Of a DNA stretch of 64,000 nt, positions 17,459 through 22,546 are shown piece after piece. Made by a program: the position numbers and the translations under genes. The notes under the pieces are model-generated. The model was not told the origin of the DNA. It made no database searches and worked only from the letters and a program-made list of their open reading frames with translations. Position 1 is the first letter of the stretch. Every line of letters begins with the position of its first letter. This DNA comes from Pyrococcus kukulkanii (GTDB lineage: Archaea > Methanobacteriota_B > Thermococci > Thermococcales > Thermococcaceae): assembly GCF_001577775.1 (NCBI RefSeq), contig NZ_CP010835.1:930001-994000 (forward strand), given 5' to 3'.

Positions 17459-17540
17459 ATATAAGTGTTTTTTGAGACACTTTTAGTTTTCAACCAAAAA
17501 TTTTAGAAAGGCCTAAAAACTTTGAAGGCTCTCAATAATT

Positions 17541-18269
17541 GTGCCCAGGATGAAAACTGAGTTCAAGTACCTCCTCCTCATAATTCTCCTGTCCTTTGGC
17601 CTAAGTTCAATAACGCTGAGCTTAATTCACCTTCAAAGCTTCATTCCTCAGTTCTTCACCCTCGCAATAGTTGATTCAGTTAACCCCTGCACCTTTGTGG
17701 TCTACACTATATTTCTCATAGCACTCTCGGTCAAAGGCCTTCCCAAGAGGGCTTTATACACCGTGGGCCTCGCCTTCATATTCGCAGTCTATGCTTCATA
17801 TTACACCCTTGGAATAGGTCTCATGATCCTAACTGGAAAGATCCCGACAACGTGGGCAGGCTATTTAGCTATTGGATTTGGAACTTATGAGATAATAACG
17901 GGACTCCTCGAGAAGTCTAGGACGGTTGGCAAGGGGAAGTTGAGGAAGCTTGCTTTTTCAAGTGAAGCCACAATAGTTGGGGGCTTAATTTTAGGTTTTG
18001 CAGTCTCAACAACCCTTCTCCCCTGCTCTATGGGGCCCTACATAGTTTTCAATACGATAATATCTAAGATGAAGGCCCTAGCTTACCTACTCTTGGCCTT
18101 ATACAACTTGATATTCGTCTTGCCCCTCTTCATAATCCTCTTTGCAATGGGAAGCTTAAGCGAGAGTAAGGAGTTCTCGAGGGCTATGGTCAGACACTCT
18201 AGAGAGCTTTCAATAATTGCTGGAATTCTCCTAATAGGTATTGGAGTATGGGTCTTGTTCAAGTTCTGA
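17541..18269 (+). CDS. CcdA/DsbD-like thiol-disulfide membrane protein
   Basis: 242 residues, about six helices. The two conserved cysteines of the CcdA fold are seen in VDSVNPCTFVVYT and TTLLPCSMGPY, in equivalent positions of the two halves. CcdA proteins carry reducing equivalents across the membrane to extracytoplasmic disulfides. No thioredoxin-like partner is adjacent. The start is GTG 17541 or ATG 17550. A SurR-like element with one mismatch (GTT-TTC-AAC-N5-ATT at 17486-17502) precedes it, which would suit a redox gene but may be chance. Confidence 0.85.
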   Translation: MPRMKTEFKYLLLIILLSFGLSSITLSLIHLQSFIPQFFTLAIVDSVNPCTFVVYTIFLIALSVKGLPKRALYTVGLAFIFAVYASYYTLGIGLMILTGKIPTTWAGYLAIGFGTYEIITGLLEKSRTVGKGKLRKLAFSSEATIVGGLILGFAVSTTLLPCSMGPYIVFNTIISKMKALAYLLLALYNLIFVLPLFIILFAMGSLSESKEFSRAMVRHSRELSIIAGILLIGIGVWVLFKF

Positions 18270-18309: not shown

Positions 18310-18879
18310 ATGGGAATTAGAGAATGGTGGGATGAAAGGAAAAGGAGAAAGAGAATCCAGCAAGAGGTTAAGGCTGCAAGAGAGATACTGCAGAACTATG
18401 TTATTCAGCATAAAGACGAACTTATTAGGGGGATAATTAATAAGTACGTGGGTTCTCGCGTCTATTTCTACTACCCCTATCCAGAAAATATCGGATTCAA
18501 GTGGAGGAATGAAGTTGAAATCTTGGGTGATGGAATTTACAGGATAAAGGCTACTGTTAAAATTAAAACATGGCTCGAACTTGAGATCCTATTTCCTGGT
18601 TTTGACAGAGATAGGGTTAGAATTGGCACTGATATCAATTTTATATTCGGGATTAGGGGGGACGTGAATGTGTATACTGGGGAAGTCTCAAACTTTGGCA
18701 AAACAAAGTACATAAGGTATAAAACTTACGGCCAATCCTATGTTCGACTCTATGATAAGGATGGGAAAATTGTCTGGGAAAAGACTTGGTCTGATTGGTA
18801 CGATGAGGGTTATTCTGACGGATATCACGATGGAGAAAACGATGGATATTCCCGCGGTTTAGCTTCCTGTCCCTGCTAG
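18310..18879 (+). CDS. Uncharacterised protein with a Tyr/Gly/Asp-rich tail
   Basis: 189 residues. The N-terminus is a basic helix (WWDERKRRKRIQQEVKAAREIL), the middle is beta-rich, and the C-terminus carries a short repeat of the form (Y/H)xDGY: DEGYSDGYHDGENDGYSRG, ending CPC. No signal peptide. No family recognised. The acidic Gly/Tyr tail could bind calcium, but that is speculation. Possibly co-transcribed with the CcdA-like gene 40 bp upstream. Confidence 0.7.
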   Translation: MGIREWWDERKRRKRIQQEVKAAREILQNYVIQHKDELIRGIINKYVGSRVYFYYPYPENIGFKWRNEVEILGDGIYRIKATVKIKTWLELEILFPGFDRDRVRIGTDINFIFGIRGDVNVYTGEVSNFGKTKYIRYKTYGQSYVRLYDKDGKIVWEKTWSDWYDEGYSDGYHDGENDGYSRGLASCPC

Positions 18880-18893
18880 TTTCAAATTTTTAC

Positions 18894-18970
18894 GTTAATA
18901 ACCTTTGGTTGGTAACACTCTTATCTAAAAAGTGTTAAAAATGTGGCACAAAATTTAATCTTGGTGTTAC
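18894..18970 (+). promoter_or_regulatory. SurR-type site plus inverted repeat before the fmdE/ABC operon
   Basis: GTT-AAT-AAC-CTTTG-GTT at 18894-18910 matches exactly the published Pyrococcus SurR consensus GTTn3AACn5GTT, and its last GTT begins a second GTT-GGT-AAC half (18908-18916). A perfect 7-bp inverted repeat TAACACT-N11-AGTGTTA (18913-18937) overlaps it, and GTGTTAC recurs at 18964-18970. SurR is the redox-sensing sulfur-response regulator of Thermococcales. The motif match is seen; binding is inference. Confidence 0.6.
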
Positions 18971-18974
18971 AAAA

Positions 18975-19667
18975 ATGCCCAAGCTAAATGAGCTCGTTGA
19001 AAAGAGAGATGCAGAGGGGATTCTCGAGTACGCGAGGGAGTTCCACGGTCACATCTGTCCTTTCCTTGCCCTCGGAATTAGGGCCTCGCTGATAGCCATG
19101 GATGAATTGGGAGTTGGAAGGCTCGACTATTCGGGGAGCGTTGATGAATCAATTCTCGCTATAGTTGAGACGAATAGTTGCTTTACCGACGGAGTGCAGG
19201 TGACAACTGGTTGTACTCTTGGAAACAACTCCCTAATATACATTGACACCGGAAAGACGGCTTTAACCCTAGTTAAGAGGAGAACTTGGGACGGTGTGAG
19301 GGTTTATGTAGATTCTGAAAAGCTTGGGGAACTTTACCCTCCCAGGGTAACTGAACTCTTCAACAAAGTAGTGAAGGAAAGAAGGGGAACCCCCGAGGAG
19401 AAGAAGGGACTGTGGAAGTACTGGGAGGAGATAGCAAGAAAGTTTTTGCACCTCCCAAAAGATTACTTCAAGATTGAAAGGGTAAAAGTCCCGCCAATAG
19501 AACAGGCTCCAATTTTTGAGAGTATTCGTTGTTCTAAGTGCGGTGAGCTTGTAATGGCTCCCAAGGTGGTCTACATAAACGAAAAGCCCTACTGCAGGGC
19601 CTGTGCTGGTGAGGAGATTCCTGCAATCATTGGAAGGGGGATAACCAGCTGGAGGTGTAATAGATGA
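18975..19667 (+). CDS. FmdE-domain protein with C-terminal zinc ribbon
   Basis: 230 residues. The N-terminal FmdE domain carries [39 protein letters not shown] and Cys/His residues for a metal. The C-terminal zinc ribbon is CSKCGELV...YCRACAG. FmdE was named from the formylmethanofuran dehydrogenase operon, but stand-alone copies occur widely in archaea without the methanogenic pathway. It overlaps by ATGA with a lipoprotein of an iron-complex-type ABC importer, so a metal or metal-cofactor role is likely. Metal identity unknown. Confidence 0.88.
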
Positions 19668-20770
19668 AGAAGCTGTTGGTTTTCACCTTAATCTTTCTCG
19701 TTCTTGGATGTCTTGATTCCTCAACTCCAATACAGACTTCCAATACGGTAAAGGTTATGGACATGCTTGGAAGAACGGTTGAGGTTCCCAAAGAAGTTCA
19801 CAGGATAGTTGCCGCGGGCCCTGGCTGTTTAAGGCTGATAGTTTACCTTAACGCAAGTGATATGGTCGTTGGAGTCGAAGACTTCGAAAAGAGGTTCAAT
19901 TTCGGCAGGCCTTACATCTTAGCTCACCCCGAGCTTAAAAATCTGCCAACGATAGGCCCGGGAGGCCCGGGCAAGTTGCCAAACTTGGAGGAGATAATGA
20001 AGCTCAAGCCCGATGTAATATTCATGACGTACGTTGATAAGAAGACCGCTGATGAAATTCAGGAAAAGACGGGAATTCCAGTTGTTGTTCTGAGCTATGG
20101 GGAGTTAGCAACTTTCAGAGATGAAGAATTGTTCAAATCACTTGAGCTCGCCGGCAAAATCCTGGGTAAAGAGGAGAGGGCCAAGGAAGTAATTAATTTC
20201 ATAAAGTCAATTCAGAAGGATTTGGAGGAGAGGACAAGGGACGTAACTCCCAAGACCGTGTACGTTGGTGGGATAGGTTATAAGGGAGCCCATGGAATAG
20301 AGAGCACCGAGGCCGATTATCCACCATTCAAGGCTGTACATGCAGAGAACGTTGCCAGTGTTCTTGGAAAGGGTCACAAGTTTATAGACAAGGAGAAGTT
20401 GCTCGAGTGGCAACCTGAGTACCTCTTCATAGACGAAGGAGGGTTAAAGCTTATCCTCGAGGACTACAAGAAGAACCCAGGATTTTATAATTCCCTAAAG
20501 GCAGTTCAAGAAGGTAAAGTGTATGGTCTACTACCATACAACTTCTACGCCACCAACATTGGGACGGCAATGGCCGATGCCTACTTCATAGGCAAGGTTC
20601 TGTATCCAGAGAAATTCAAGGATATTGACCCGGCGAAAAGGGCGGATGAGATCTATGAGTTCCTAGTGGGTAAGCCGGTCTATTCAATCATGGCGAAGCA
20701 GTTCGGTGGATTTGGGAAGATAGATCTCGAGAATGGGAAAGTTACATACTCCCTGCCGGTGAATCCATGA
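19664..20770 (+). CDS. ABC transporter substrate-binding lipoprotein (iron complex/cobalamin type)
   Basis: 368 residues. The signal peptide has lipobox VLGC (Cys near residue 17). The mature start [19 protein letters not shown] is the standard entry to class III periplasmic-binding folds (BtuF/FhuD), followed by [23 protein letters not shown]. The family binds siderophores, haem, cobalamin or sometimes molybdate/tungstate. Substrate cannot be read from the sequence. Overlaps the permease start by ATGA. Confidence 0.9.
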
Positions 20771-21777
20771 TGTACGAAGGATACGTTAGAAAGAGGATCC
20801 TCACAGCTCTGGGCCTTCTCTTCCTAATTTTCTTGGTTAGCTTATTTTCCCTCATGAAAGGAGCTTACCTCCTCTCTCCACAAGAGGTTTTGAGTGCCCT
20901 GGCGGGTAAAGGTTCGAGGGCGGCAATCTACACAATATGGAACATAAGGCTTCCAAGGATAATTGCGGCAATCCTGGTTGGAGCTTCTCTGGCATTAAGC
21001 GGTGCAGTTCTACAGGGGATACTGAGAAATCCCTTGGCAACCCCCTTTACCATGGGAGTTTCTCACGGGGCAATGTTTGGAGCCTCTTTGGCGATAATCC
21101 TCGGAGCGGGCTATGCTGAGAGCTCTGGGAGGGTAATAATTGACAACCCTTATGCAATAGTCTTATTTGCATTCATGGGAGCGATGTTGTCAACGATAAT
21201 CATCGTATCTTTGGCGAAGCTTAAGGGGCTGAGCCCCCAGGCGATGATACTTGCCGGAGTTGCCATGAGTTCACTTTTCATGGCCCTAACAACATTAATT
21301 CAGTACTTTGCCAACGAGCTTCAGCTCGCGGCCATGGTTTATTGGAGCTTTGGTGATCTGGGAAGACCCTACTGGAGGGAAGATTTAATCATGCTGGTTT
21401 CGTTTATACCTGCAATCGGCTATTTCCTAGCGAGAAGATGGGATCTTAATGCTACATCCATAGGGGATGAAGTTGCGCTTTCCGTGGGTGTTGAGGTTGA
21501 CAAGTTCAGGATGATCTCTGCTGTCTTATCAGCTTACATTACAGCCGTTAGCGTTGCATTCGTTGGTGTCATAGGCTTCATAGGGCTAATCGCTCCACAC
21601 GCGATAAGATTGGTATTTGGAGGGGACTACAGGTTCTTAATCCCCCTTTCAACGCTACTTGGCTCCTTAATACTCCTGACAGCAGATACATTCGCGAGGC
21701 TTGCGTTCTCCCCAATGATCCTACCCGTTGGAGTTGTAACTTCATTTTTAGGGCCCCAATGTTCCTGTACCTCCTAA
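20767..21777 (+). CDS. ABC transporter permease (BtuC/FecCD family), frameshifted at its end
   Basis: 336 residues as read, with about ten helices and FecCD signatures ([38 protein letters not shown]). The reading ends oddly as [11 protein letters not shown]. Inserting one base at GGGCCCC (21751-21757) restores the family end, [19 protein letters not shown], with the stop at 21798-21800 overlapping the ATPase start by ATGA. The gene is therefore either recently frameshifted at a G/C run or carries a sequencing error. Only the last dozen residues are affected. Confidence 0.9.
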
Positions 21778-21796
21778 TAAAGATGGAGGGGGTAAG

Positions 21797-22546
21797 ATGA
21801 AGGCTTTAGTCCTAGAGGACGTCTCCTTCTCGTACAATGGCCGTTCAATACTCAAGGGGGTAAGCTTTGATGTTGAGAAAGGGGAGTTCTTGGTAATCCT
21901 GGGGCCGAATGGGGCAGGAAAAAGCACCCTCCTAAGGTGTATCCTGGGCATGCTGAAGTGCTCAGGATCGATAGATATCATGGGCAGGAATTTGAAAACG
22001 TTAAGGAGGGATGAGCTAGCTAGACTTATATCATATGTCCCTCAGAGGGTTGAACCGAACTTTTTGAGGGTGTTTGACTTTGTTCTCTTAGGCAGGAAGC
22101 CATATATGAGCCTAAGACCGAGTAATGAAGATATAAAGTTAGTAATAAATGTCCTAGAAACTGTGGGCATTGAAAAGCTTGCAGAGAGGCCAACTAAGAT
22201 GCTCAGCGGAGGAGAACTTCAGAAAGTTGCGATAGCTAGGGCTCTAGCCCAGGAAACCCCTATACTTGTGCTGGACGAACCAACAAACAACTTAGATCCG
22301 AAAAGTCAGATTGAAATCATGAGGCTATTGAGGGAGCTCTCATTGGCTGGTAAAACTGTTATTGCCGTTATGCATGACGTTAACTTAGCTCTAAGATTTG
22401 GAGAGAGGTTTATATTCATGAAAAAGGGGGAGATACTTGGGGATTATAGAAAGAACACCATACGGAAAGAAGTTTTTGAGAAAACATTTGATGCAAAAGT
22501 TGAGCTCATTGAAACTAAGCATGGGCCGTTATGTTACTTCCTCTAG
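21797..22546 (+). CDS. ABC transporter ATP-binding protein (FecE/BtuD type)
   Basis: 249 residues. Walker A GPNGAGKST, signature LSGGELQKVAIARAL, Walker B ILVLDEPTNNLDP and H-loop AVMHDVNLAL. YVPQR and FDFVLLGRKPYM are typical of iron-complex importers. Fourth gene of the FmdE-binding protein-permease-ATPase operon; it converges on the TatD-like gene with an 18-bp overlap. Confidence 0.94.
   Translation: MKALVLEDVSFSYNGRSILKGVSFDVEKGEFLVILGPNGAGKSTLLRCILGMLKCSGSIDIMGRNLKTLRRDELARLISYVPQRVEPNFLRVFDFVLLGRKPYMSLRPSNEDIKLVINVLETVGIEKLAERPTKMLSGGELQKVAIARALAQETPILVLDEPTNNLDPKSQIEIMRLLRELSLAGKTVIAVMHDVNLALRFGERFIFMKKGEILGDYRKNTIRKEVFEKTFDAKVELIETKHGPLCYFL

What the first reader, a model, noticed from the sequence alone, without database searches (positions are those of the whole stretch)
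18894..18970. Exact SurR consensus and an overlapping inverted repeat before the FmdE-ABC importer operon
GTT-AAT-AAC-CTTTG-GTT matches the known redox-controlled SurR site fully, and a 7-bp inverted repeat TAACACT-N11-AGTGTTA overlaps it. This suggests dual control of a metal-type importer by sulfur/redox state and by a second regulator. A one-mismatch SurR-like site also precedes the CcdA-like gene at 17486-17502.
Basis: partly seen in the sequence, partly recalled or inferred. Interest (0 to 1): 0.55.

Follow-up and report, generated by a model that had tools for sequence, protein, structure and literature searches.

The report
Sulfur- and nickel-controlled promoter of metal importer
In a heat-loving archaeon, the switch in front of an unnamed metal importer carries a binding site for the sulfur sensor SurR and what looks like a site for the nickel sensor NikR, and the same pair sits before other nickel-uptake genes across the family, so the importer probably feeds nickel to hydrogenases.

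Summary
The forward SurR site GTTn3AACn5GTT (18894-18910) is exact, but the conserved site is the overlapping reverse-strand copy (18900-18916): 38 of 57 Thermococcaceae orthologues against 8 of 1643 background tiles. The second conserved control element lies just downstream of the TATA box: GTGYTAC-N14-GTGATAC (window 18943-18970), resembling the published delta-proteobacterial NikR operator.

A model of this promoter, run on 94 genomes, also hit promoters of CbiM/NikM (Ni/Co transporter), the substrate-binding protein without FmdE, and a CooC-like ATPase. Of 30 CbiM promoters, 28 have a SurR-like site and 30 the N14 half-sites. nikR is in 91 of 94 genomes and directly upstream of fmdE in 9 of 57. 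The window's genome has a second FecCD-type importer operon with both sites.

Best reading: a nickel importer activated by reduced SurR when hydrogenases are needed and repressed by Ni-NikR. Binding and substrate are untested. Published sulfur-response data in Palaeococcus point partly the other way.

The parts
18894..18910 (+).
   Evidence: present in 15 of 57 orthologous promoters
18900..18916 (-). Exact long SurR consensus on the minus strand (reads AACCTTTGGTTGGTAAC on +); this is the evolutionarily conserved copy
   Evidence: 38 of 57 orthologous promoters against 8 of 1643 background tiles
18912..18938 (.).
   Evidence: best match in own genome; at least 12 of 14 consensus positions in 8 of 57 promoters
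18927..18942 (+). Predicted core promoter: BRE AAAAAGTG (18927-18934) and TATA box TTAAAAAT (18935-18942)
   Evidence: Conserved columns; general promoter spacing from PMC4247193 passages
18943..18970 (.). Candidate NikR operator GTGGCAC-N14-GTGTTAC, just downstream of the TATA box and over the predicted start site
   Evidence: GTRNYAC-N14-GTRNYAC fully matched in 39 of 57 orthologous promoters against 0 of 1643 background tiles; published NikR consensus in PMC545781
18963..18966 (+). Predicted ribosome binding site GGTG, overlapping the right half-site
   Evidence: Sequence; T. kodakarensis RBS consensus GGDGRD
18975..19667 (+). FmdE-domain protein with C-terminal C4 zinc finger, first gene of the operon
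19664..20770 (+). Substrate-binding lipoprotein, Peripla_BP_2
20767..21777 (+). FecCD-family ABC permease
21797..22546 (+). ABC ATPase of the FecE/BtuD type
17486..17502 (+). One-mismatch SurR-like site upstream of the CcdA-like gene (17541-18269); GTTn3AAC half conserved
   Evidence: 7 of 7 Pyrococcus loci encoding the gene

Best explanation
This is a two-input promoter of a nickel importer. Reduced SurR (no elemental sulfur) binds AACn5GTTn3AAC directly upstream of the BRE/TATA box and activates transcription, as it does for hydrogenase operons. Nickel-loaded NikR binds half-sites spaced by 14 bp between the TATA box and the start codon and represses when nickel is sufficient. The FmdE-SBP-FecCD-ATPase operon is therefore on when [NiFe]-hydrogenases are being made and nickel is short. 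Shown here: both elements, their conservation and positions, their recurrence before CbiM/NikM and other nickel-type genes, and the presence of both regulators. Inferred: protein binding, the direction of each effect, and nickel as the substrate.
For: (1) Reverse long SurR site in 38 of 57, at most one mismatch in 51 of 57 orthologous promoters; background 8 and 30 of 1643 tiles. (2) GTRNYAC-N14-GTRNYAC fully matched in 39 of 57 and at least 11 of 12 positions in 48 of 57; background 0 and 2 of 1643. In 32 non-redundant promoters: 27, 20 and 28. (3) PMC545781 gives the NikR consensus GTGTTAC-[N13/14]-GTAACAC and an everted form (passages). (4) In 30 CbiM promoters chosen by protein only, 28 have the SurR-like site within one mismatch and 30 the N14 pair at 10 or more of 12; there the right half-site is separate from the ribosome site. 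(5) nikR in 91 of 94 genomes; its domain ends within about 200 bp upstream of fmdE on the same strand in 9 of 57 (counted by hand). The own NikR matches P. horikoshii NikR over its full length, and the own SurR matches PF0095. (6) A methyltransferase-SBP-FecCD-ATPase operon elsewhere in the own genome also has an exact reverse long SurR site plus GTGTTAC-N14-GTAGTAC. (7) Other long SurR sites of this genome lie before hypA and near hypF/hypD, i.e. hydrogenase maturation genes.
Against: No binding, expression or transport data. In 6 of 8 Pyrococcus orthologues the right NikR half-site is degenerate (GTGTGAA). In the window the operator matches the strict inverted consensus at only 9 of 14 positions (12 of 14 as an everted site on the minus strand). 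GGTGAT is also a ribosome binding site, which inflates conservation of the right half in fmdE promoters. Outside Thermococcaceae the FmdE-ABC operon is kept but the NikR pattern is essentially absent. In Palaeococcus pacificus sulfur raised Ni/Co transport genes (PMC6981617), and in T. gammatolerans a cbiQ gene rose about 5-fold with nickel (PMC3407056); neither paper's genes were matched here to this promoter. The SBP also resembles HI_1472, which I recall as a molybdate-binding protein.
Confidence: 0.7

Rival explanations
1. The downstream element belongs to a regulator other than NikR (for example a molybdate, tungstate or iron regulator), and the importer carries that ligand.
For: FmdE is named for molybdenum formylmethanofuran dehydrogenase operons; the SBP matches HI_1472 at 5e-21 (molybdate role recalled) and an 'iron(III)' SBP 2etv at 1e-159. 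Methanothermobacter NikR homologues have been suggested to respond to other metals (PMC3087415 passage).
Against: The element equals the published NikR consensus type and spacing, lies beside nikR in 9 of 57 genomes, and recurs before CbiM in 30 of 30 examined promoters.
Confidence: 0.15
2. Only SurR acts here; the GTRNYAC pair is explained by core promoter and ribosome-site constraints.
For: The left half-site abuts the TATA box and the right half-site overlaps GGTGAT.
Against: In CbiM promoters the right half-site is 20 or more bases from the start and separate from the GGAGGTG ribosome site, yet the N14 pair persists in 30 of 30. Background tiles with 11 or more of 12 positions: 2 of 1643.
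Confidence: 0.08
3. NikR is right but the upstream AACCnnnGGTT element belongs to an activator other than SurR that is specific to nickel genes.
For: In CbiM promoters the exact long SurR site is rare (1 of 30 reverse, 8 of 30 forward) and the last consensus base is usually changed (AAT); conservation extends beyond SurR to AACAC.
Against: 38 of 57 fmdE promoters and the second own operon carry the exact reverse long site. SurR sites before hydrogenases in this genome share the AACCnnnGGTT core (by eye). Published SurR sites before hydrogenases often carry one mismatch (PMC12162507 Table 2 passage).
Confidence: 0.15

Closest known systems
SurR (PF0095) regulon of Thermococcales
   Same: Exact GTTn3AACn5GTT sites directly upstream of BRE/TATA, the reported activator position (PMC12162507, PMC10025317 passages); SurR gene present
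   Different: The target is a metal importer rather than an electron-flow operon, and the promoter carries a second, metal-type operator
NikR regulon with GTGTTAC-[N13/14]-GTAACAC operators (delta-proteobacteria, PMC545781)
   Same: Half-site sequence, 14-bp spacing, control of NikM/CbiM-type transporters, nikR next to the transporter
   Different: In fmdE promoters the right half-site is usually GTGATAC; the operator sits between an archaeal TATA box and the start codon; combined with SurR
FecCD-type metal importers (Fe-siderophore, BtuCDF, MolBCA of Haemophilus)
   Same: Peripla_BP_2 SBP, FecCD permease, FecE/BtuD-type ATPase
   Different: Led by an FmdE-domain zinc-finger protein; predicted substrate nickel

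Membership tests
SurR regulon | Consensus GTTn3AAC(n5GTT) in the promoter | tested here: met
   Exact on both strands; conserved
SurR regulon | Site upstream of BRE/TATA for activation | tested here: met
   18894-18916 against predicted BRE/TATA 18927-18942; rule from PMC12162507 passage
SurR regulon | SurR protein encoded in the genome | tested here: met
   Own ORF matches PF0095 chains 2qlz/2quf over residues 1-231
SurR regulon | Redox-dependent binding and expression change with sulfur | not testable with these tools
   Needs gel shift and transcript data
NikR regulon | Operator of two half-sites GTGTTAC/GTAACAC spaced 13-14 bp | tested here: inconclusive
   Relaxed form GTRNYAC-N14-GTRNYAC met in window and 39 of 57; strict consensus in the window 9 of 14 inverted, 12 of 14 everted on the minus strand
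NikR regulon | nikR gene in the genome, with RHH and nickel-binding domains | tested here: met
   (NCBIfam NikR 234.5 bits over cut-off 105)
NikR regulon | Shared operator with nickel genes or nikR adjacency | tested here: met
   CbiM 30 of 30 promoters; nikR directly upstream of fmdE in 9 of 57 genomes
NikR regulon | Nickel-dependent binding and repression | not testable with these tools
   Needs footprinting and nickel titration
Nickel importer | Nickel binding and uptake | not testable with these tools
   Inferred from regulation only

The most novel reading that the evidence does not exclude
Across Thermococcaceae an interlocked promoter element, in which the SurR site and NikR half-sites overlap around the BRE/TATA box, makes nickel import an 'activate by SurR unless nickel is sufficient' gate, tying nickel supply to hydrogenase synthesis; the FmdE-ABC operon is a nickel import system not described as such in what I could read, with FmdE as a cytoplasmic metal handler.
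Probability: 0.35. Interest if true: 0.65.

Novelty: new variant of a known kind. Interest (0 to 1): 0.52.

Why it matters
It gives a testable function (nickel uptake) to a widespread archaeal FmdE-ABC operon and extends the sulfur-response network from electron-flow enzymes to the metal their hydrogenases need. It also offers a natural archaeal promoter where an activator site and a metal-repressor site flank and overlap the core promoter, which can be dissected in vitro with two proteins that already have solved structures or close relatives of them.

Tried and rejected
A whole-promoter model in the own genome alone found only the fmdE promoter strongly, with weak hits after it. Strict inverted NikR consensus in the own genome: 2 places against 6 in the reversed control, so the strict pattern alone does not discriminate. 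Looking for the same operator outside Thermococcaceae: 66 contigs with FmdE, 38 with more than 35% identity printed; besides the three Thermococcales contigs only L051 reached 11 of 12. The insert gene 18310-18879 gave no family. A check of the second operon's promoter in G005 (L289) found no usable start in two attempts. Literature: ten searches listed no paper joining SurR, NikR and this operon, but the key papers (Rodionov 2006, Lipscomb 2009 and 2017) are not held, and Rodionov 2006 may already predict archaeal NikR targets; that is recalled, not read.

Rows dropped: duplicate loci L009, L033 and L034 left out of the 57; L113 and L122 left out of A1 (55); L027, L119, L121 and L126 left out of A2 (51); L117 and L122 left out before the non-redundant set of 32; 2 of 32 CbiM loci had no start found. 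The CbiM set was the 30 best-scoring loci of 65 genomes with a match, plus two further Pyrococcus loci.

Full report
What is there. The window is part of a 1.98-Mb Pyrococcus-type genome (species recalled from size only). The operon at 18975-22546 encodes an FmdE-domain protein with a zinc finger, a Peripla_BP_2 substrate-binding protein, a FecCD permease and an ABC ATPase.

The SurR site. Long SurR matches occur 30 times in this genome against 16 for the reversed control, so one match is weak evidence. I found orthologues of FmdE in 57 of 94 Thermococcaceae genomes and collected 57 upstream regions. In 1643 tiles of 150 bp from the same loci the corresponding counts are 68, 8 and 6. In the window both orientations coexist (18894-18910 and 18900-18916). 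The site lies upstream of the predicted BRE/TATA, the position at which SurR is reported to activate (PMC12162507 and PMC10025317, passages). This genome encodes SurR.

The second element. The alignment shows a further conserved block after the TATA box, CGTGYTACT, followed after 14 bases by GTGATAC. Scored as GTRNYAC-N14-GTRNYAC it is perfect in 39 of 57 and at least 11 of 12 in 48 of 57; background 0 and 2 of 1643. After removing similar promoters the counts are 20 and 28 of 32. PMC545781 (passages) reports the NikR consensus GTGTTAC-[N13/14]-GTAACAC for delta-proteobacteria, and an everted form. The window's copy is GTGGCAC-N14-GTGTTAC, 18943-18970.

Link to nickel. A sequence model of the promoter, searched in 94 genomes, hit besides fmdE promoters the promoters of CbiM/NikM, of the SBP where FmdE is missing, and of a CooC-like ATPase ('CooC-like' is my reading, as the family hits are only CbiA/MinD-type). 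To avoid circularity I then took CbiM genes by protein family alone: of 30 promoters with a start found, 28 have the SurR site within one mismatch and 30 the N14 pair at 10 or more of 12 (background 30 and 29 of 1643). There the right half-site (usually RTRRCAC) is separate from the ribosome site, which removes the main alternative reading of GGTGATAC. nikR is found in 91 of 94 genomes, and comparing coordinates by hand, its domain lies immediately upstream of fmdE on the same strand in 9 of 57 (G001, G019, G026, G041, G048, G052, G059, G063, G072). At least one of FmdE or CbiM is present in 84 of 94 genomes.

Second operon in the same genome. A methyltransferase-SBP-FecCD-ATPase operon near 1.39 Mb has an exact reverse long SurR site and GTGTTAC-N14-GTAGTAC. 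Long SurR sites also precede hypA and lie by hypF/hypD, so nickel insertion and nickel import appear together under SurR.

It is the best everted NikR-like match of the genome (GTAACAC-N13-GTGTTAA, one mismatch), but at least 12 of 14 positions are met in only 8 of 57 promoters. Its left arm is conserved (TAACAC in 46 of 55) beyond what SurR needs, which I cannot fully explain; its right arm is mostly the TATA box.

Mechanism. Shown: sites, positions, conservation, recurrence, presence of both regulators. Inferred: SurR activation without sulfur, NikR repression with nickel, nickel as substrate. The weak points are listed under evidence against: degenerate right half-site in 6 of 8 Pyrococcus, poor strict-consensus match in the window, no recognisable site outside the family, and published expression data in two relatives that do not fit simply; sulfide could lower free nickel and release NikR, but that is speculation.

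Novelty. SurR and NikR are both known. The combined promoter and the nickel assignment of the FmdE-ABC operon were not found in the papers I could search; several key papers are not held.

Noticed in passing
18310-18879: A 189-aa ORF without Pfam or NCBIfam match sits between the CcdA-like gene and the fmdE promoter; tblastn found it in none of the other 32 loci tested, and in other Pyrococcus the CcdA-like gene ends directly at the fmdE promoter.
   Followed up: partly
17486-17550: SurR half-site GTTn3AAC before the CcdA-like gene is conserved in 7 of 7 Pyrococcus loci encoding it, always with the third GTT changed to ATT, suggesting a redox-controlled thiol gene.
   Followed up: partly
L229:964-2046, L215:3385-3861: FmdE is fused to a TrmO_N domain in one Thermococcaceae genome (G034), and a TrmO_N gene follows a truncated FmdE in another (G017); PMC11237513 reports FmdE-methyltransferase fusions in other archaea.
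   Followed up: partly
L203:about 367-975: In G069 a nikR gene and the composite promoter precede an FmdE N-terminus joined to a peroxiredoxin-like C-terminus, a rearrangement or an assembly error (identity by eye).
   Followed up: no
L256:1148-4818 (G000 near 1.39 Mb): A second FecCD-type importer operon led by a SAM methyltransferase carries both site types; only one other Pyrococcus (G005) of 9 genomes has the methyltransferase, with an in-frame TGA.
   Followed up: partly
L231, L230, L234: A CbiA/MinD-type ATPase resembling CooC has the composite promoter in three Thermococcus-type genomes.
   Followed up: partly
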